Below, piece after piece: positions 1,793-58,384 of a stretch of 64,000 nucleotides of DNA (position 1 is its first letter; each line of letters begins with the position of its first letter). The notes beneath the pieces are model-generated. The model ran no database searches. It was not told where the DNA came from and worked only from the letters and a program-made list of their open reading frames with translations. The stretch spans positions 2,384,501-2,448,500 of the forward strand of contig NZ_CAMTTE010000001.1 in NCBI RefSeq assembly GCF_947077775.1. Direction: 5' to 3'. A program made the position numbers and the translations under genes. This DNA is from Salinibacter pepae (GTDB lineage: Bacteria > Bacteroidota > Rhodothermia > Rhodothermales > Salinibacteraceae).

Positions 1793-4417
1793 ATGCGTTA
1801 CACTTTGCTTTCCGTCTTCCTTCTGCTTTTTGGCGGGCCCTTGGCCGCGCACGCCCAGCCCGACGCCGCGCATCCGTCCGCCGACGCGCTTTCCATCCGC
1901 TGGGGCGTGGAGACGAATCGGGTGGACGACGGAAACCGATTTCGGTCGTCGTTCACGATTGCGAACCACGGGGACGTGGCGCTGGGGGCGACCCAGTGGA
2001 CGCTCTACTTCAACTTCTCGCGCCAGATCGACCCGGCGAGCGTGACGGCGCCGGTGCGCATCACGCGGATCAACGGCGACTTCTATCGGCTGGAGCCGGA
2101 CGCCGACTTCACCCCGATCGAGCCCGGCGACCAGCTGCAATTCACGGTCGAGGCCACCGGGTCGGTCATCAAGCGCATCGATGCCCCGGCCGGCTTCTAC
2201 GTCGTGTTCAGGGACGCGGAGGGCCGACCCGGGCCGCCCGCCGCCGTGTCGGACGTGACGGTCGAGCCCTTCACCCGTCCCGCCCAGACGTCCCGGGGCC
2301 CGAACGACGCATGGCCCGTCCCGACCCCCGCGACCCGGTACGCGGACCACCGCTCCCTCACGGCCCGCCCGCCCGACGCGGAGGGCCGCATTGTGCCGAC
2401 GCCGGACTCCATCCACCGGCGCCCCGGGGCGTTTGCGCTCCGGGCGGACGCGACCATCCGCTACGAGGCGGGGCTGGCCGCCGAGGCCCGCCAGCTCGCG
2501 GACGGACTGGCCGACGTGCTGGGACGACGGCCCCGAACGACACGGACGGATTCGGCCGCCGCCATCACACTCCGCCGCGCGGAGGGGACGCCGCCCGCCG
2601 TCGATACGGCGTCGGCCGAGGCCTACCGGCTCACGGTCGATCCGGACACGGGCATCGTCATCACGGGCGCGACCGACGCGGGCGTGTTCTACGGGGGGCA
2701 AAGCCTGGAGGCCTGGCTCCCGGTGGCGGCCTACCGGGCGCCGTCGTCGCCGGTGGACGTGCCTGCCGTCCAGGTTCTGGACGCGCCCCGATTCGGCTAT
2801 CGGGGGCTCCACCTCGACGTGGCGCGCAACATGCAGTCGGTGGCGGCGGTGAAGCGGCTGCTCGACGTGATGGCGTTCTACAAGCTGAACACCTTTCACT
2901 TCCACCTCACCGACGACGAGGGGTGGCGCCTCGCCGTCGAGGGCCTGCCCGAGCTGACCCGCGTCGGGGGGCGCCGCGGCCATACGCTTACTGAGCAGGA
3001 TCACCTGATGCCGTCCTACGGGTCGGGGCCCAACCCCAGTCCCACCGCCTCTGCCGGGAGCGGGTGGTACAGCCAGGCGGACTATCTCGAGATTCTCCGG
3101 TACGCCGCGGCGCGACACATCACCGTGCTCCCCGAGATCGACGTGCCCGGACACGCCCGGGCCGCCATCCAGGCCATGGAGGCCCGGACGGGCCGACTCC
3201 GGGCGGACGGCGACACGGCGGCGGCGCGGCGCTACCGGCTGCATGACCCAGACGATGCGTCGACCTACGAGTCGGTGCAGGGCTGGGACGACAACGTGAT
3301 GAACGTCTGCCAGCCGTCGACCTACCGCTTCCTCACGGCCGTCGTGGACGAACTTCGGGGGTTGCACGACACGGCGGGGGCGCCGCTCCCGGCCGTCCAC
3401 GTGGGCGGGGACGAGGTGCCGGCGGGCGCGTGGGCGGGGTCTCCCATCTGCGACGATTACATCACGCGCACCGAGGGGGTCGATGGGGCCGACGATCTCT
3501 TCGGGCACTTCCTGGGCCGGTTTCAGGACACACTCGCCACGCGGGGGATCGCCATGGCGGGGTGGGAAGAGGTGGGGCTGGAAGAGGCCGATCACCGGTC
3601 CGCAGCCACGACCCCGAACGAGGCCCTGGTCGACGAGGGCGTCCGGCCCTACGTCTGGAGCAACATCTGGGGCGGCGGGACGGAGGACCGCGCCTACCGG
3701 CTGGCCAATGCGGGCTACGACGTGGTGATGTCACAGGCCACCAACTTTTATTTCGACATGGCCTACAACAAGCACCCCCGCGAGGACGGCTACTACTGGG
3801 CCGGCTTCGTCGATACGAAGGCCCCGTTTGCCTTCGTGCCGTTCGACCTCTACAAGAGCGCCGACCGCACGAGGATGGGGCACCCCATCGACCCCGATAC
3901 GGCCTTCGCCGACCACGCGCGCCTGGCCGACACCGCGCGGAACAACATTCGGGGCCTGCAGGGACAGCTCTGGGGGGAGACCCTGCGCGACACCGACCGG
4001 ATGGAGTACATGGCCGTCCCGCGGCTTCTGAGCCTCGCCGAACGGGCGTGGGCCCCGCGGCCCGGCTGGGCCACGCTCGACGACAGCGGAGCCCTCCGGG
4101 CCCGGCGGGCCGAGGCATGGACGGCGTTTGCAAATCGGCTCGGGCACCGTGAGCTGCCCCGCCTGAGCATTCGCCATCCGGACTGGTCGTACCGGCTTCC
4201 CCCGCCCGGGGCCACGGTGGAGGCGGGCACGCTGAGGGCGAACGTGGCCCTGCCCGGGCTGGCGGTCCGCTACACCACCGACGGCACCCGCCCGACCGCC
4301 ACGTCGCCCCGATACACCGGCCCGGTCTCGGTCCCTGAGGGGGCCCCCGTCCGACTGCGGACGTTCGACACGCTGGGGCGGGGCGGCCGGACCGTCACGG
4401 TCCCCACGTCCCCGTAG
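1793..4417 (+). CDS. Secreted beta-N-acetylhexosaminidase (GH20)
   Basis: 874 aa from the ATG at 1793, chosen because it begins a clean signal peptide (MRYTLLSVFLLLFGG...AHAQ); longer in-frame extensions overlap the terminator. Domain order: N-terminal chitobiase/hexosaminidase carbohydrate-binding domain (about 25-150), GH20b domain (about 200-330), GH20 TIM barrel (about 335-780) and a C-terminal chitobiase-type Ig-like domain (about 800-870, YTTDGTRPT). The catalytic Asp-Glu pair of GH20 is visible in HVGGDEVP (D540, E541), as is the substrate-binding FHFHLTDDEGWR segment. It should release terminal GlcNAc/GalNAc from chitooligosaccharides, glycans or murein fragments in the periplasm or outside the cell. 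It sits with SusD, a LacI regulator, symporters, a NagZ-like enzyme and a sugar kinase. Confidence 0.95.
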   Translation: MRYTLLSVFLLLFGGPLAAHAQPDAAHPSADALSIRWGVETNRVDDGNRFRSSFTIANHGDVALGATQWTLYFNFSRQIDPASVTAPVRITRINGDFYRLEPDADFTPIEPGDQLQFTVEATGSVIKRIDAPAGFYVVFRDAEGRPGPPAAVSDVTVEPFTRPAQTSRGPNDAWPVPTPATRYADHRSLTARPPDAEGRIVPTPDSIHRRPGAFALRADATIRYEAGLAAEARQLADGLADVLGRRPRTTRTDSAAAITLRRAEGTPPAVDTASAEAYRLTVDPDTGIVITGATDAGVFYGGQSLEAWLPVAAYRAPSSPVDVPAVQVLDAPRFGYRGLHLDVARNMQSVAAVKRLLDVMAFYKLNTFHFHLTDDEGWRLAVEGLPELTRVGGRRGHTLTEQDHLMPSYGSGPNPSPTASAGSGWYSQADYLEILRYAAARHITVLPEIDVPGHARAAIQAMEARTGRLRADGDTAAARRYRLHDPDDASTYESVQGWDDNVMNVCQPSTYRFLTAVVDELRGLHDTAGAPLPAVHVGGDEVPAGAWAGSPICDDYITRTEGVDGADDLFGHFLGRFQDTLATRGIAMAGWEEVGLEEADHRSAATTPNEALVDEGVRPYVWSNIWGGGTEDRAYRLANAGYDVVMSQATNFYFDMAYNKHPREDGYYWAGFVDTKAPFAFVPFDLYKSADRTRMGHPIDPDTAFADHARLADTARNNIRGLQGQLWGETLRDTDRMEYMAVPRLLSLAERAWAPRPGWATLDDSGALRARRAEAWTAFANRLGHRELPRLSIRHPDWSYRLPPPGATVEAGTLRANVALPGLAVRYTTDGTRPTATSPRYTGPVSVPEGAPVRLRTFDTLGRGGRTVTVPTSP

Positions 4418-51260: not shown

Positions 51261-52915
51261 ATGCCAAGCACGACCGAGAATGTCACGGATGTACCGCCCT
51301 CTGATACAGAATCGTCGTGGTGGGCCCAGGCGGGGGACGCGGTGGCCGAAGAGTTTGGGGTTGATCCGGACGCGGGACTGTCGGCGGACGAGGCGGCCCG
51401 GCGGCGCGACGAGGTCGGCCCCAACGACCCGGCGACAGGGCGGCGGGGCGCACGCGCCGGACCACGGAGGCCGGGCAGCCGCGGGTGGACGAGGAGGCGT
51501 TCGACACGAACGTGAAGATGATGGCGACGGTGCACGAGCAGGACGGCGGCCCGTACCGGGTGGCCGTGAAGGGGGCGCCGGAGGCCGTCCTCGACGCCGC
51601 CACCCACGAGGCGACGGCCGACGGAAAAGAAGAGCTCGACGACGAGGCCCGCGCCCGCTGGCATGAGCGCAACGAACAGATGGCGAACGAGGGCCTCCGC
51701 ATCCTCGCCCTCGCCCAGAAGACGGTCGACGATCCCGGCGCGCCGCCGTACGAGGGCCTCACGCTCCTGGCCCTGGTGGGCCTCTACGACCCGCCGCGCG
51801 ACGACGTGCAGCCGGCCATCGAGATGTGCCGCGGGGCGGGCATCGAGGTCGTCATGATTACCGGCGACCAGCCCGTCACGGCGCGGAGCATTGGGCGGGC
51901 GGTGGGGCTGGTGGACCGCGACGACGCGCCGGTGGTGCACGGGGCCGACATGAAGCCGCCCGACGCGCTGAGTGACGAGGAGCGACACGAGCGCCTCCAC
52001 ACGCGGCTCTTCGCCCGGGCCACCCCGCGACAGAAGCTGGACCTCATCGAGCTGCACCAGCGGGCGGGCCGCATCGTGGACATGACCGGTGACGGCGTGA
52101 ACGACGCCCCGGCCCTCAAGAAGGCCGACGTCGGCATCGCGATGGGGCAGCGCGGCACCCAGGTGGCGCGCGAGGCGGCGGACATGGTGCTGCAGGACGA
52201 CGCCTTCTCCACCATCGTGGCGGCTGTGCGACAGGGGCGCGTCATCTTCCGCAACATCCGGCAGTTCGTCTACTACCTGATGTCGTGCAACGTGGGGGAA
52301 GTGGCCGTGGTGGGTCTGGCCACCGCCGTAGGCACGCAGCTCCCCATCCTGCCGCTCCAGATCCTCTTCCTCAACCTGGTGACGGACGTCTTCCCCGCCC
52401 TGGCGCTGGGCGTGGGGGAGGGCGACGAAGGCACGATGCGCCGCCCGCCCCGCGACCCCTCGGAGCCGGTGCTGAGCCGGCGCCACTGGATCGGCATCGG
52501 CGGGTACGGGCTCGTCTTTTCCGGGGCCGTGCTGGGGGCGCTCTTCTGGGCGACGCAGGGGCTGGGGCTAGAGGGCGAGGCGGCCATTACGGTCTCGTTC
52601 CTCACCCTGGCGTTTGGGCAGCTCTGGCACGTCTTCAACATGCGGCAGCCGGAGTCCGGCGTGCTGGTGAACGAGGTGACCCGCAACCGCTACGTCTGGG
52701 CCGCGGTGGGCTTCTGTGAGCTGCTCCTCTTCGGGGCCGTCTACCTCCCCGGCGTCGCGGGCGTGCTGGAGATCCAGCCGCCGGGGGCGGACGCCTGGAC
52801 GATCATCGCGCTCATGAGCCTCGTGCCGCTGGCAGTGGGGCAGGGGGTGTTGGGGGTGCGGGGGTACCTCAGAGTGTCGAGCGAGAAAAGGACTGCGGTG
52901 GACTCGTTACGGTAA
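51261..52915 (+). pseudogene. Cation-transporting P-type ATPase with a deleted centre
   Basis: The N-terminal cation-ATPase domain is recognisable from ATG 51261 (WWAQAGDAVAEEFGVDPDAGLSADEAARRRDEVGPND, to about 51440). The sequence then jumps out of frame to the nucleotide-binding domain (RVDEEAFDTNVKMMATVHE..., frame of 51485), followed by intact VMITGDQPVTARSIG, TGDGVNDAPALKKADVGIAMG and six C-terminal membrane helices to 52915. Missing are TM1-4, the actuator domain and the phosphorylated DKTGT, roughly 350 residues, so it cannot pump. The stop codon lies within a copy of the fic-type operator. A 3' product of 476 aa could still be made from a GTG at 51485, but would be inactive. Confidence 0.85.
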
Positions 52916-52966
52916 GAAGAACCGGTTTTTCATTCTAAGAGGTAGAAAAACGATAAGCGCTTACCG
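52904..52966. repeat. Degenerate copy of the fic operator module at the left edge of the RT island
   Basis: CGTTACGGTAAGAAGAACC, then TTTTT, a TAA box and finally TTACCG at the far end, align along about 60 bp with 57107-57170 upstream of the fic gene. The second arms are decayed here, though a perfect TAAGCGCTTA palindrome lies at 52954-52963. It brackets, with the intact copy, 4.1 kb containing the SLATT, RT and AbiEi genes. Confidence 0.6.
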
Positions 52967-53119
52967 CACAGCTAACGCGCGGTTTAGTTCAGAGGGGACT
53001 TGAGGGTCGTTCAGGCGATTCTCGGGCATTCCGTGCAGCGCCTGTCGGAACGGTGCGCTCACCTTGCGCCATAAACGCTTGACGCTGCAGCGGATGAGAT
53101 TTTCGGATAGGACAACATT

Positions 53120-53716
53120 TTATATAGCAAGGAAAACTAAGACTGGAGGTATTAGACAAAAAAGTACTGGCTTCCAGTATATTCTCAAATTCCATTTTAT
53201 TATATAAAAATTTTTTTCTATGCATCCTAAGTCGAAATGGTCGTTATTTGCTCTAAAGTAATCGAAATCATCTCTCTCGTGGTTTTGCGCGTACTTGTCT
53301 AACACATTGTTATATCTTTTTATTAAATTTTCTATTTCCTCATATTTAACATTTCCTTTATCCAAAACTATATCTAGCTTTCGTAGTAATTTTGCTAATT
53401 CTCTTCCACACATTACAAATCGCTCCGACTTTACCATATAGCTTTTCCCAGACTCAAAAACACTTAAGACTAGTATACCTATCGAAGATGTAATAGAGGC
53501 TATATACAGGTATCTACTCGTCTCGCCAGTTATGTTGAGCAATAATGGTAGTATAGATATTATCAATACATACAAAGATATTACGCTTATCGCCCCGAGT
53601 GACCACCAGTGCATCCTTCGACATCTCCGGTGTGCATTCATTCTTGCTTCACGAGTATACCAAATTTGTCTCCTGAGACGCTCAGCGCTTTGTATTGCTG
53701 ACTCGCACTCGGACAT
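53120..53716 (-). CDS. SLATT-family two-TM effector-like protein
   Basis: 198 aa from the ATG at 53716. N-terminal amphipathic helix rich in Arg/Glu, two adjacent membrane helices (about 38-60 and 67-87), then a helical cytosolic region (SGKSYMVKSERFVMCGRELAKLLRKLD ... IENLIKRYNNVLDKYAQNHERDDFDYF) and a final hydrophobic segment (181-198). This plan is that of SLATT domains, predicted pore-forming effectors in bacterial conflict systems; one SLATT subfamily is known to pair with reverse transcriptases. The gene is very AT-rich compared with its surroundings, pointing to transfer. It follows the RT on the same strand, 195 nt apart, and probably acts as its killing/abortive effector (inference). 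Confidence 0.78.
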   Translation of the reverse strand: MSECESAIQSAERLRRQIWYTREARMNAHRRCRRMHWWSLGAISVISLYVLIISILPLLLNITGETSRYLYIASITSSIGILVLSVFESGKSYMVKSERFVMCGRELAKLLRKLDIVLDKGNVKYEEIENLIKRYNNVLDKYAQNHERDDFDYFRANNDHFDLGCIEKNFYIIKWNLRIYWKPVLFCLIPPVLVFLAI

Positions 53717-53738
53717 GTCAATTTTTGGATTTAAAAAG

Positions 53739-53912
53739 AGGCGAGGGAGCCCAGATGTCCACGACGATGCTCCCCAGCCCAACAGGGGTACTGGAGATCT
53801 ACGGGCCTCTCGGCCTAAGATTACATGCACTCCAAGCTAACCCAAGAGCCGGCAGCTTGGAGTTTCCCCGTGGAGGGTAATTAACTACCAGCACGGGTAG
53901 GCCCCCTCGCCT
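53739..53912 (-). ncRNA. Candidate structured RNA filling the RT-SLATT gap
   Basis: In the sense of the two genes, AGGCGAGGGGGC (53912-53901, starting inside the RT stop codon) pairs with GCTCCCTCGCCT (53750-53739) as a 12-bp stem in which the only non-Watson-Crick pair is G-U; it closes the whole spacer. Inside are a perfect 10-bp hairpin (53829-53838 with 53854-53863, loop 15), CTACC/GGTAG (53885-53900), GGCC/GGCC (53804-53815) and CCCC/GGGG (53772-53788). The closing stem is followed by CTTTTTAAA, as at an RNA 3' end, 20 nt before the SLATT start. It could be a template or guide RNA for the RT, or a control element for SLATT expression. Confidence 0.5.
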
Positions 53913-55290
53913 AACTCAGTGTACCGGCGTCGGATTCAAGAGTTGAAATAACCTGGTCCTTTTCCCTTCTGAACAGTTTTTCTATTTCGTCAGTCGAGTA
54001 CTGTTCAGACGGATCAACTAAACCGCGCTCCAGAAGATAGTGATACTTCTTCTTTGGGTTGTTGAGAGCATCATAGTTGCGAATGTATCCACCCCGGGGA
54101 TTACTTTGAGCTTCCCAGTAGGCCCTGGCAATACGTTGGAGCGAAGAGGGTACTTCTTGGAAGCAGGGGGATCGACCAAAAAAGTCTCGAACTATAGCGT
54201 CAATACGATGAAGAAGCTCTTCATCATTTATCTCTACATAGTAGAATATCCACCCATATCGTCTATCTTCCGATATCACTCCAGTCAACCTATTGTTAAG
54301 CGACTCTACGAATATTCTTTTCAAATCAGAGTCTTCGACGTTATCTCTTTTTCTTTTCTCTTCTTCGAAGTTTTCTCGTATATAAGTGAATTTTGCGGCT
54401 AAGGAATCGATAAATTCATCGACACTCTTCTTTCTAACTGTGACGTTTTCTCCCTTAAAGTAATATCCTAGATATTGGAAACCGCTATCAGTCTTTATCG
54501 GATGGCTTTTGTCGCTATTTAGGCTAAGCCCCCCTCTATTATTAAGCTCATTACCCAACATAGTCACTACGCTACTCAAGCTGTCAGCTTTCCAGAATAT
54601 TATAATGTCGTCAACGTATCTCTCGTAAAATGCAAATTTTTGCCTCATATTATGATCGAGTCCCTCTAGGCATATCTCTGCCAGTATGTTCGAAATAGAC
54701 AAACCTTGGGGGATACCTTTTCCTTTCTTGTATTTGTCTTTATCTGTATATCTATAATTCTTAGGCACTGTGGGTGTTTTTATTGCTCTTAATAATAAAT
54801 TTATTATTCTTTCTGAGTCTATTCTAGATCTTAGTTTATGTTCCAAATATTCGTATTCAATATCCCCGTAAAATGACTCGATATCCGCTCGATATATTTT
54901 TTTGTCGTTACTCTTATCTGATAGATAAAATTCTTTCAATCTTCGTATTACCTGATTAGGAAGACTTCTGTTCACGCAATCGTCGAATATATCGTGTAGT
55001 ATATCTTTCAAAATTAATAAAACAATTCTATCTCTTACTGTCGGTATAGATATCACACGTGGTTTTTTATTGCGTCCTCTCGATTTCAGAACCTCCCTGT
55101 ACGGTGTGAATGTATAAGTTCCGTCCCTACACTTGCGTCTTATTATTTGAAATTGTTCAGCTTTCTGCTCTTCAAATCGACTTGGACTCACGCCATCCAT
55201 ACCAGCTCCCCCTCTCCCGGCGATTTCCTCTTCGTATACCGCTCTCAGATTGTCGAGGCTGAAACGGGTATCGAATACTTCGTCTTCCAT
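53911..55290 (-). CDS. Reverse transcriptase of the UG/Abi (defence-associated) type
   Basis: 459 aa. All RT blocks are present: GMDGVSPSRF (30-39), RVISIPTVRDRIV (78-90), RADIESFYGDI with the first catalytic Asp (D136), GIPQGLSISNILAEICLEGLD (192-212), YVDD (225-228) with the catalytic Asp pair, LSLNSDKS and FQYLGYYF. The C-terminal 170 residues are helical with no maturase X, GIIM or endonuclease features, so this is not a group II intron ORF; retron NAxxH and VTG motifs are absent too. AT-rich relative to flanks. Partnered with the downstream SLATT gene and with structured sequence on both sides. DRT-type RTs act against phage through cDNA synthesis, often from an adjacent RNA; the exact class cannot be set by eye. 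Confidence 0.88.
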   Translation of the reverse strand: MEDEVFDTRFSLDNLRAVYEEEIAGRGGAGMDGVSPSRFEEQKAEQFQIIRRKCRDGTYTFTPYREVLKSRGRNKKPRVISIPTVRDRIVLLILKDILHDIFDDCVNRSLPNQVIRRLKEFYLSDKSNDKKIYRADIESFYGDIEYEYLEHKLRSRIDSERIINLLLRAIKTPTVPKNYRYTDKDKYKKGKGIPQGLSISNILAEICLEGLDHNMRQKFAFYERYVDDIIIFWKADSLSSVVTMLGNELNNRGGLSLNSDKSHPIKTDSGFQYLGYYFKGENVTVRKKSVDEFIDSLAAKFTYIRENFEEEKRKRDNVEDSDLKRIFVESLNNRLTGVISEDRRYGWIFYYVEINDEELLHRIDAIVRDFFGRSPCFQEVPSSLQRIARAYWEAQSNPRGGYIRNYDALNNPKKKYHYLLERGLVDPSEQYSTDEIEKLFRREKDQVISTLESDAGTLS

Positions 55291-55326
55291 CCCTTGGAAA
55301 ATCAGTTTATCGATATTTTACCAACT

Positions 55327-55439
55327 GGGTATCCCATCTTCGACCCCTCCGCTCAGAACGCCAGATTCACCATATTCGTGAAAAGCAACCTGCCTTGAGC
55401 GGCTGCAATCGGCAGCGGTGTCGAAGGTATGGGGTATCC
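55327..55439. ncRNA. Candidate structured RNA or DNA element just upstream of the RT
   Basis: A 17-bp stem joins 55327-55343 to 55421-55439 (two G-T pairs as read on the plus strand, one 2-nt bulge). Nested inside are CCGCTCA/TGAGCGG (55349-55355 with 55396-55402) and GCTGC/GCAGC (55402-55416). It begins 37 bp upstream of the RT start codon. On the minus strand the two G-T pairs become A-C mismatches, so a plus-strand transcript folds slightly better. DRT loci such as DRT2 carry a template RNA upstream of the RT. Orientation and transcription are unproven. Confidence 0.45.
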
Positions 55440-55443
55440 TTTT

Positions 55444-55545
55444 TGTGCAGTTCTGCACATCTCAATGCTGAATGTCGGAATGGCATTGAATCCCCCACAG
55501 AACGCCGGTTAAAGGCGCTCAAGCGCGACTCAGTGGGTGCCAACT
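55444..55545. other. Cluster of inverted repeats upstream of the RT
   Basis: A perfect 7-bp palindrome TGTGCAG-TT-CTGCACA (55444-55459) is followed by TCAATGC/GCATTGA (55462-55489) and GCGCT-CA-AGCGC (55515-55526). The first could be a regulator site; together with the preceding 17-bp stem they make about 200 bp of nearly continuous secondary structure. From 55546 to 55700 I see nothing nameable. Confidence 0.45.
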
Positions 55546-55700
55546 AGGACATTTAGAGTAACGACAATGCCGACACGAGGATATTCTAACTCCGTTATGT
55601 CTGCTGTCTTTCTATCAGTCCTTCATGCCGACTGATGTTTGCCCTCTCGCATCACTGCCGCCACTCAGAGACCTCGTGTCATGTTCCTAGCGAGATGAGC

Positions 55701-55755
55701 GACGATTCGCGATTCCGCACTGCAACGACGCGGCAATCCGCAGCGAGAAGCGTCG
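55701..55755. repeat. ACGATTCGC...GCAATCCGCAGCGAG repeat, copy A
   Basis: Shares with copies B (57042) and C (58417) the blocks ACGATTCGC, GC-CTG and GCAATCCGCAGCGAG. All three are intergenic, same orientation, within 2.8 kb. From here to the AbiEi start (55756-56009) no other feature is clear. Confidence 0.55.
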
Positions 55756-56009
55756 GGGCCGCCCCGCGTCGGGCGTACCTTCTCCTCAAAATGCCAGATC
55801 TCATCCAGTGCCCCGTTCGGGGGACGGGAGTGAAGCGAGGAGACGAGCGGACAGCAGTTCGCAGTGGGAATCGGTGGTTGTAACATATTGTCAGCATCTG
55901 GCGTTATATGCCGACGTTACGCCACAAAGTTTGATGGTCTCCCTTCGTAGGGGATCAAGACCAAAATCTGTAGCGGAGCCCGCCGCCGAAATTGTCTCCG
56001 ACGGATCTC

Positions 56010-56612
56010 ATGCCCGACACGAACACGGATCGGCTTCTTTCGCTGGCCGACAAGCGGGGAATTCTCCGCACTCGTGAGGTGGAAGACGAGGGCATTCCCC
56101 GGCAGTCCCTCTCCCGCTTCGTCGACCGCGGCGACCTCGTGCGGATCGGTCGCGGTCTCTACCGGCGCCCCGACCATGAGGTGACCGCGCATCACTCCCT
56201 GGCCGTCGCCGCCAAGCGGGTGCCAAAGGGCACCGTGTGTCTCCTCTCGGCCCTCCAGTTCCACGGCCTGACGACCCAGAACCCGCTCGACGTGTGGCTC
56301 GCCATCGGCCACAAGGACCGAGAGCCGTCGGTCGACGCCGTGTCACTTCGCATCGTCCGCATGTCCGGCGAGGCCCGCACCAAAGGCGTTGAGACCCACG
56401 AGATTGAGGGCGTGTCCGTCCCCATCTACGAGCCCGCAAAGACTGTTGCGGATTGCTTCAAGTACCGCAGCTGCATGGGGCTCGACGTGGCGCTGGAGGC
56501 CCTTCGCGACTTTCACGATCAGGGCGGATCGATCGACGTCCTCTGGCACTACGCTGACCTCTGCCGCGTGCAAACAGTCATTCGTTCCTACATGGAGGCC
56601 GTCACCTCATGA
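56010..56612 (+). CDS. AbiEi-family antitoxin (type IV toxin-antitoxin regulator)
   Basis: 200 aa from the ATG at 56010 (MPDTNTDRLLSLADKRGILRTREVE). N-terminal winged HTH (about 5-60, GILRTREVEDEGIPRQSLSRFVDRGDLVRIGRGLYRRP), then the AbiEi C-terminal antitoxin region (YEPAKTVADCFKYRSCMGLDVALEALRDF). In complete AbiE systems this protein represses the operon and counters the nucleotidyltransferase toxin AbiEii encoded just downstream with ATGA overlap. Here the overlap is kept but the toxin is reduced to a stub, so this is an orphan. Composition matches the host genome. Confidence 0.85.
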   Translation: MPDTNTDRLLSLADKRGILRTREVEDEGIPRQSLSRFVDRGDLVRIGRGLYRRPDHEVTAHHSLAVAAKRVPKGTVCLLSALQFHGLTTQNPLDVWLAIGHKDREPSVDAVSLRIVRMSGEARTKGVETHEIEGVSVPIYEPAKTVADCFKYRSCMGLDVALEALRDFHDQGGSIDVLWHYADLCRVQTVIRSYMEAVTS

Positions 56613-57169: not shown

Positions 57170-57220
57170 TAAGAGGGTCTGCGAGAGTAGATTCAGCCTC
57201 GTTCTTTCCGCCCGGTGCCC

Positions 57221-58384
57221 ATGACTGAGTCTCGGCCCCCGACCGACACCGTATCTCTCGACGAGTACGAGTCGGGGCGGTACGTCTTGCAGGGGAGCTA
57301 CGAGGCGTTTATTCCGTCGTCCGTCAATCACGGCTGGGCGTGGGACGATCCGCGCATCAACACGCTGCTGGAAGAGGCCACGCGGGCGCTCGGCGAGCTG
57401 AATGCCTTCTCGCGCATCGTCCCCGACGTCGATCTCTTCATCCGGCTCCATGTGGTCAAGGAGGCCACCGACTCCAGCCGCATCGAGGGGACACGCACCG
57501 AGGTGGAGGAGGCGATCCGTCCGGAAGAGGAGGTCGATCCGGACCGGCGGGACGACTGGCGGGAGGTTCAGAACTACGTACAGGCCCTGCGGGAGGCCAT
57601 CGACGCGCTGGATACGCTTCCCCTCTCCACCCGTCTTCTCAAGCAGACGCACCGGACGCTGATGCAGGGCGTGCGCGGCCAGAACCGGCAGCCGGGCGCG
57701 TACCGGCGGAGCCAGAACTGGATCGGGGCCAGCCTGGACGACGCAGTCTACGTCCCCCCTCCACACCACGAGATCGATCGGCTGATGAGCGATCTGGAGA
57801 TGTTCTGGCACAACGAGTCGGTTCAGGTGCCCCGCCTGATCCGCATCGCGATCAGCCACTACCAGTTCGAGACGATTCACCCGTTTCTGGACGGCAACGG
57901 CCGGATTGGGCGACTGCTCATCCCCCTGTACCTCATCCGCCACGGGCTGCTCAACAAGCCGTCGCTCTACCTGTCAAGCTACATCGAGCGACACAGGGCC
58001 GCCTACTACGACGCGCTGATGACCGTCCGCGCCTCGGATGATCTGGGGCACTGGATCCGCTTCTTCCTCGTGGCGGTCCGCGAGACGGCGCGGCAGGGGT
58101 GCGACACGTTCGAGGACCTCCTCTCCCTCCGCGAGCGAGTGGAGGAGCAGATCACGACGCTGGGCCGCAAAGCCGCGAACGCGCGGACCCTGCTCACGCG
58201 GCTGTACCAGGAGCCCTACGTCCGATCGGCCAAAAACGTCGCTGAGCACCTGGACGTGACCCCCAAGACCGCCCGGAGCCTCCTCCAGGACCTTGAAGAC
58301 CTCGGCATCCTGGAGGAGACGACCGGCAAGCAGCGCAACCGCCGCTACGTCTTCGCCGAGTACGTCGCTCTTTTTCAGCGATAG
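57221..58384 (+). CDS. Fic-domain AMP-transferase with C-terminal helix-turn-helix
   Basis: 387 aa from the ATG at 57221. The Fic motif HPFLDGNGRIGR (220-231) with catalytic His is intact. An N-terminal inhibitory helix carries SSRIEG (85-90), the (S/T)xxxE(G/N) motif whose Glu blocks ATP orientation, making it an auto-inhibited class II Fic. Residues of about 315-385 form a winged HTH (YVRSAKNVAEHLDVTPKTARSLLQDLEDLGILEETTGKQRNRRYVF). It should AMPylate a target protein and probably binds the paired palindromes in its own promoter region. Flanked on both sides by the same intergenic repeat (copies B and C). Confidence 0.92.
   Translation: MTESRPPTDTVSLDEYESGRYVLQGSYEAFIPSSVNHGWAWDDPRINTLLEEATRALGELNAFSRIVPDVDLFIRLHVVKEATDSSRIEGTRTEVEEAIRPEEEVDPDRRDDWREVQNYVQALREAIDALDTLPLSTRLLKQTHRTLMQGVRGQNRQPGAYRRSQNWIGASLDDAVYVPPPHHEIDRLMSDLEMFWHNESVQVPRLIRIAISHYQFETIHPFLDGNGRIGRLLIPLYLIRHGLLNKPSLYLSSYIERHRAAYYDALMTVRASDDLGHWIRFFLVAVRETARQGCDTFEDLLSLRERVEEQITTLGRKAANARTLLTRLYQEPYVRSAKNVAEHLDVTPKTARSLLQDLEDLGILEETTGKQRNRRYVFAEYVALFQR

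What the first reader, a model, noticed from the sequence alone, without database searches (positions are those of the whole stretch)
53739..53912. A closed, multi-hairpin RNA exactly fills the RT-SLATT spacer
A 12-bp stem starting in the RT stop codon closes the whole 170-nt spacer and is followed by CTTTTT. Its one non-standard pair is a G-U only in the sense orientation, as expected for RNA selected on that strand. Four internal hairpins, one a perfect 10-bp stem, fill it. In DRT2 and DRT9 an adjacent RNA is the template of the RT; this is a natural candidate for such an RNA here.
Basis: partly seen in the sequence, partly recalled or inferred. Interest (0 to 1): 0.85.

Follow-up and report, generated by a model that had tools for sequence, protein, structure and literature searches.

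The report
DRT10 defence system's template RNA
The hairpin-rich stretch between a reverse transcriptase gene and a small membrane-protein gene is very probably the template RNA of a bacterial anti-phage system called DRT10, which copies a short loop over and over like telomerase; the kind of system was described in 2025, and this is a divergent member whose RNA is joined to the end of the polymerase gene.

Summary
In detail: a 174-nt element (53739-53912, minus strand) is closed by a 15-pair stem (0/1000 shuffles), holds four hairpins and fills the RT-SLATT spacer. The RT is UG17 (PADLOC, E 2e-132) and the partner SLATT_5, so this is DRT10, described in a 2025 preprint (PMC12632851), not DRT2 or DRT9. 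The RNA has the DRT10 plan: closing stem, SL2-SL5, then a template loop. A covariance model built from cyanobacterial relatives, without the window, finds this RNA as its only hit in 64 kb, on the expected strand (E 1.5e-6). Over nine relatives, 34 of 37 pairs show compensatory change (0/500 shuffles). The loop reads CATC-GTCGTGGA-CATC, the A-B-A' pattern that makes DRT10 add tandem repeats; predicted product (TCCACGACGATG)n. The window's repeat alone is not significant (p about 0.12), but across 22 related loops repeats start at a fixed place after SL5 (0/1000). The RT ends in Ser459, aligned with the proposed priming residue. Differences from the tested systems: order RT-ncRNA-SLATT, closing stem starting inside the RT stop codon, and an RNA that an Eco3-like model does not detect. 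New member of a known kind, from a divergent clade.

The parts
53911..55290 (-). UG17 (DRT10) reverse transcriptase, 459 aa; YVDD motif (DD at 227-228); C-terminal Ser459 is the predicted protein primer
   Evidence: PADLOC RT_UG17 E 2.1e-132; Pfam RVT_1; Ser or Tyr at this place in relatives; AlphaFold model pLDDT 90.8 with a disordered tail 455-459
53739..53912 (-). DRT10-type template ncRNA, 174 nt
   Evidence: covariance model R1, built without it, hits 53741-53910 minus, 31.5 bits, E 1.5e-6, only hit in the window; covariation
53898..53912 (-). P1 closing stem, 5' strand; its first two bases are the last two of the RT stop codon
   Evidence: 15 contiguous pairs, 0/1000 shuffles; P1 98% paired and every pair covarying in relatives
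53739..53753 (-). P1 closing stem, 3' strand
53867..53897 (-). SL2 hairpin (CCCGTG/CACGGG with an inner GGTA/TACC stem)
   Evidence: fold; helix 2 of A10, 90.7% of cells paired
53829..53863 (-). SL3, perfect 10-bp hairpin
   Evidence: fold; helix 3 of A10, 92.6% of cells paired
53819..53828 (-). conserved motif GCATGTAATC between SL3 and SL4
   Evidence: TGTAATC identical in window, L045, L046, L047, L049, L050
53798..53820 (-). SL4 hairpin
   Evidence: fold; the least well supported helix in the comparison
53771..53797 (-). SL5 hairpin, predicted 5' template boundary
   Evidence: fold; helix 6 of A10, 95.2% of cells paired
53754..53770 (-). template loop; A = CATC (53766-53769), B = GTCGTGGA (53758-53765), A' = CATC (53754-53757); predicted cDNA (TCCACGACGATG)n
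   Evidence: sequence; position-specific repeat enrichment in 22 related loops; the window's own repeat is not significant alone
53731..53738 (-). U-rich run CTTTTT after the closing stem
   Evidence: sequence; similar runs in about half of the relatives
53120..53716 (-). SLATT_5 two-TM protein, 198 aa, predicted effector
   Evidence: Pfam SLATT_5 E 1.5e-40; PADLOC RTasSLATT E 1.2e-37

Best explanation
The element is the template RNA of a DRT10 anti-phage system in the order RT - ncRNA - SLATT. The RNA is transcribed with the RT message, folds into a closing stem (P1), four hairpins and a 3' template loop, and is bound by the UG17 RT (inferred). The RT starts DNA synthesis on its own C-terminal Ser459 and copies the A-B segment up to the SL5 boundary; the new DNA end, which is the copy of A, then re-pairs with A' and the segment is copied again, giving long single-stranded (TCCACGACGATG)n linked to the RT (inferred from the published DRT10 mechanism). 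The repeat DNA controls the membrane protein SLATT, which stops or kills the infected cell (inferred; also unproven for the tested DRT10 systems). Shown here: the protein families, the conserved and covarying RNA, its strand and plan, the repeat pattern in the loop, and a conserved hydroxyl residue at the RT C-terminus.
For: RT_UG17 E 2.1e-132 and SLATT_5 E 1.5e-40 side by side. PMC12632851 reports UG17 + SLATT + ncRNA upstream of SLATT as DRT10, with a closing stem, four stem-loops, a template loop directly after SL5, A-B-A' templates and C-terminal Ser/Tyr priming. A model from cyanobacterial RT-SLATT spacers finds the window RNA blind. 93.3% of cells paired, 34 of 37 pairs with changes on both sides, 0/500 shuffles, against 38-47% when slid. 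Repeats start 2-3 nt after SL5 across 22 loops, 0/1000. Ser459 aligned with terminal Ser or Tyr in relatives.
Against: No transcript, RT binding or cDNA is shown. An Eco3-like covariance model does not hit the window or its clade. The window's own CATC repeat has p about 0.12 in its loop, so the exact repeat unit is uncertain; an internal CGTCGT could cause slippage. The loops tested are related, so 0/1000 is not a probability. Alignment A10 was fitted to the model's structure, which favours it.
Confidence: 0.9

Rival explanations
1. The structure is a transcription terminator or attenuator between the RT and SLATT cistrons that sets their ratio, with no template role.
For: Closing stem followed by CTTTTT; U runs follow P1 in about half of the relatives.
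Against: A 174-nt multi-branched element with four conserved hairpins and a conserved ATGTAATC motif is far more than a terminator needs; in L045 the same RNA follows the RT although SLATT lies upstream; some relatives have no U run; the terminator scan does not list it. It may serve as a 3' end in addition.
Confidence: 0.05
2. The RNA is a DRT2-like template for a rolling-circle cDNA that makes a hidden gene, or a DRT9-like homopolymer template.
For: Same general idea of an RT-adjacent structured RNA; the DRT9 ncRNA is reported to resemble the DRT10 ncRNA.
Against: RT scores 440 bits for UG17 against 73.5 (Drt2) and 60.6 (Drt9); no poly-U in the template loop; SLATT partner typical of UG17.
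Confidence: 0.03
3. A mobile palindromic repeat (REP-like) or other intergenic hairpin that happened to land in the spacer.
For: High GC (60%) between AT-rich genes.
Against: Single copy in the genome; same position and plan with covariation across phyla.
Confidence: 0.01

Closest known systems
DRT10 (UG17 RT + SLATT + ncRNA; Eco1, Eco2, Eco3 DRT10; PMC12632851)
   Same: RT class, SLATT partner, ncRNA directly upstream of SLATT, closing stem with four hairpins and a template loop after SL5, A-B-A' pattern, C-terminal hydroxyl residue
   Different: RT lies upstream and the RNA begins in the RT stop codon; the RNA is 174 nt against 137 for Eco3, with longer SL2 and SL3; carries ATGTAATC; not detected by an Eco3-like model
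DRT9 (UG28; poly-dA synthesis)
   Same: Structured RT-adjacent RNA and protein priming; similar RNA outline reported
   Different: RT scores far lower for Drt9; no poly-U template
DRT3a (UG3; poly-dTdG from an ACACAC loop; PMC13174585)
   Same: Related RT, repeat synthesis from a loop; the next named PADLOC class is Drt3a, 117 bits
   Different: SLATT partner instead of a second RT; 12-nt rather than 2-nt repeat predicted
Telomerase
   Same: Works like it: short template plus alignment segment, repeated copying up to a structural boundary (analogy made in PMC12632851)
   Different: Protein-primed, short RT, bacterial; not a member

Membership tests
DRT10 | UG17 reverse transcriptase with intact YVDD | tested here: met
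   PADLOC RT_UG17 E 2.1e-132; YVDD in alignment
DRT10 | adjacent SLATT protein | tested here: met
   Pfam SLATT_5 E 1.5e-40
DRT10 | structured ncRNA upstream of SLATT: closing stem, four stem-loops, 3' template loop after SL5 | tested here: met
   outline compared with the Eco3 RNA in L155
DRT10 | match to an Eco3-like ncRNA covariance model (one subgroup of DRT10 RNAs, not a requirement for membership) | tested here: not met
   model R2 gives no hit in the window or its clade; the preprint itself treats Eco1-, Eco2- and Eco3-like RNAs apart
DRT10 | A-B-A' repeat in the template loop | tested here: met
   CATC-GTCGTGGA-CATC; alone p 0.12, clade-wide position test 0/1000
DRT10 | C-terminal Ser/Tyr primer | tested here: met
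   Ser459 aligned with terminal Ser or Tyr; chemistry not tested
DRT10 | tandem-repeat cDNA and phage defence | not testable with these tools
   needs experiment
DRT9 | UG28 RT and poly-U template | tested here: not met
   60.6 bits for Drt9; no poly-U in the loop
DRT2 | UG2 RT | tested here: not met
   73.5 bits against 440 for UG17
Rfam families | match at gathering score | tested here: not met
   no match at the locus

The most novel reading that the evidence does not exclude
In this clade the template RNA is made from the 3' end of the RT message itself: the closing stem begins inside the RT stop codon, so a terminating ribosome would hold P1 open and the RNA could fold only as the finished RT, with its priming C-terminus, is released. 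That would be translation-coupled, cis assembly of a telomerase-like enzyme.
Probability: 0.2. Interest if true: 0.65.

Novelty: new member of a known kind. Interest (0 to 1): 0.47.

Why it matters
DRT10 is the bacterial system proposed to be nearest to telomerase. This divergent clade shows which RNA features are conserved (closing stem, SL5 boundary, repeat-bearing loop) and which are not, gives a falsifiable 12-nt repeat prediction, and supplies a covariance model for RNAs that an Eco3-like model misses.

Tried and rejected
Single-protein scans of genome and viral contigs with the window RT found nothing; alignments were needed. Phage records gave no match at E 1e-20. The phylum search with RT_UG17 returned mostly other RTs: none of the returned loci but the window's has SLATT. 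MAFFT alignment of 14 diverse spacers misplaced stems, so a structure model was used. Testing the longest repeat anywhere in each loop was inconclusive (Fisher p 0.13 against neighbouring sequence); the fixed-offset test is informative for the group only. The Eco3-like model R2 did not hit. Telomerase did not appear among the structural matches shown; group II intron RTs, DRT9 and DRT2 did; no conclusion drawn. A sigma-70 promoter just upstream of the RNA was not found, but the scan may not cover this organism's promoters.

Full report
Observation. The minus strand of 53739-53912 forms a closed structure. A 15-pair closing stem runs from the A of the RT stop codon to just before CTTTTT; no shuffle in 1000 reached it. 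Inside are four hairpins, including a perfect 10-bp one. The sense strand folds at -89.5 kcal/mol (z -5.1) against -79.0 (z -4.3) for the antisense.

What the neighbours are. The upstream gene (53911-55290) is a UG17 RT (E 2.1e-132; the next named class, Drt3a, at 117 bits), and the downstream gene (53120-53716) is SLATT_5. UG17 RTs are found with SLATT_5 in about 82% of cases (PMC8934634). A 2025 preprint (PMC12632851) shows that UG17, SLATT and an ncRNA upstream of SLATT form DRT10, that the RT starts on its C-terminal Ser or Tyr, and that a loop with an A-B-A' pattern directs telomerase-like tandem repeats. The operon is AT-rich in a GC-rich genome, so probably acquired.

Related loci. Scans with RT alignments gave 80 genome loci and further viral-contig loci. 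In the tree the window falls in a well supported set of 23 rows of which 20 are RT-first; most other DRT10 loci are SLATT-first. Nearly all RT-first relatives in that set have an RT-SLATT spacer that folds with a long closing stem of very variable sequence (L056 is unclear). In 8 of 19 loci, the window included, the stem starts inside the RT stop codon, and in one more directly after it (the window's printed offset of -1 there was typed in wrongly by me and is -2). In L045 SLATT is upstream, yet the RNA still follows the RT stop codon. In L110, L115 and L120 a comparable structure lies upstream of the RT (fold only). So the RNA seems able to sit in each of the gaps of the operon.

Covariation. 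A model from five cyanobacterial spacers, without the window, finds the window RNA as the only hit in 64 kb on both strands, 53741-53910 minus, E 1.5e-6, and also L045, L051, L210, L052, L060 and, weakly, L057. Over nine sequences 93.3% of cells pair, 34 of 37 pairs change on both sides, and no shuffle of 500 matches this; sliding the partners drops pairing to 38-47%. P1 pairs in 98% of cells and all 11 of its model pairs covary. The alignment leans to the model, but the blind hit does not depend on that. An Eco3-like model does not recognise this clade, and Rfam gave no match for it.

Template. After SL5 the window reads CATC GTCGTGGA CATC, then the closing stem. This is A-B-A' with A of 4 nt and a period of 12, predicting (TCCACGACGATG)n. 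By itself such a repeat occurs in about 12% of shuffled loops. Across 22 related loops the repeat begins 2-3 nt after SL5 far more often than in shuffles (z 4.5, 0/1000); the offset of the window loop was set by the model alignment, loop ends of the others were set by hand, and the loops are related, so this is support rather than proof. For Eco3 the same scan recovers the published unit GAATCATTG, in L155, which carries that template.

RT. Ser459 is the last residue and aligns with terminal Ser or Tyr in relatives. The predicted structure is confident (pLDDT 90.8) with a flexible tail at 455-459 and resembles group II intron RTs, DRT9 and DRT2.

Mechanism. Shown: families, conserved RNA structure, strand, loop pattern. 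Inferred from DRT10: RT binding, serine priming, repeat synthesis, SLATT control. Inferred from anatomy: the RNA comes from the RT message, perhaps folding as translation ends.

Noticed in passing
52873-55726: The operon sits in a variable site. A same-genus genome (L273) has, between the same flanks, an ORF with a type I restriction HSDR_N domain instead; another (L274) lacks both DRT10 and AbiE, with the ATPase end close to the amidase.
   Followed up: partly
55992-56612: AbiEi-type antitoxin without its AbiEii toxin next to it; the relative L273 keeps an AbiEii gene at 3256-4089.
   Followed up: partly
51262-52915: P-type ATPase that seems to lack its middle part (short N-terminal piece, then the C-terminal 476 aa in another ORF); likely a pseudogene.
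   Followed up: no
57215-58384: Fic/DOC family protein close to the defence genes.
   Followed up: no
L110, L115, L120, upstream of the RT: RT-SLATT loci without a spacer carry a multi-hairpin closed element upstream of the RT, suggesting yet another ncRNA position in DRT10 operons.
   Followed up: partly
L059:2190-2340: An archaeal-labelled (Woesearchaeota) contig with a UG17-like RT followed by a closed multi-hairpin element but no SLATT detected; the contig may be mis-binned.
   Followed up: no
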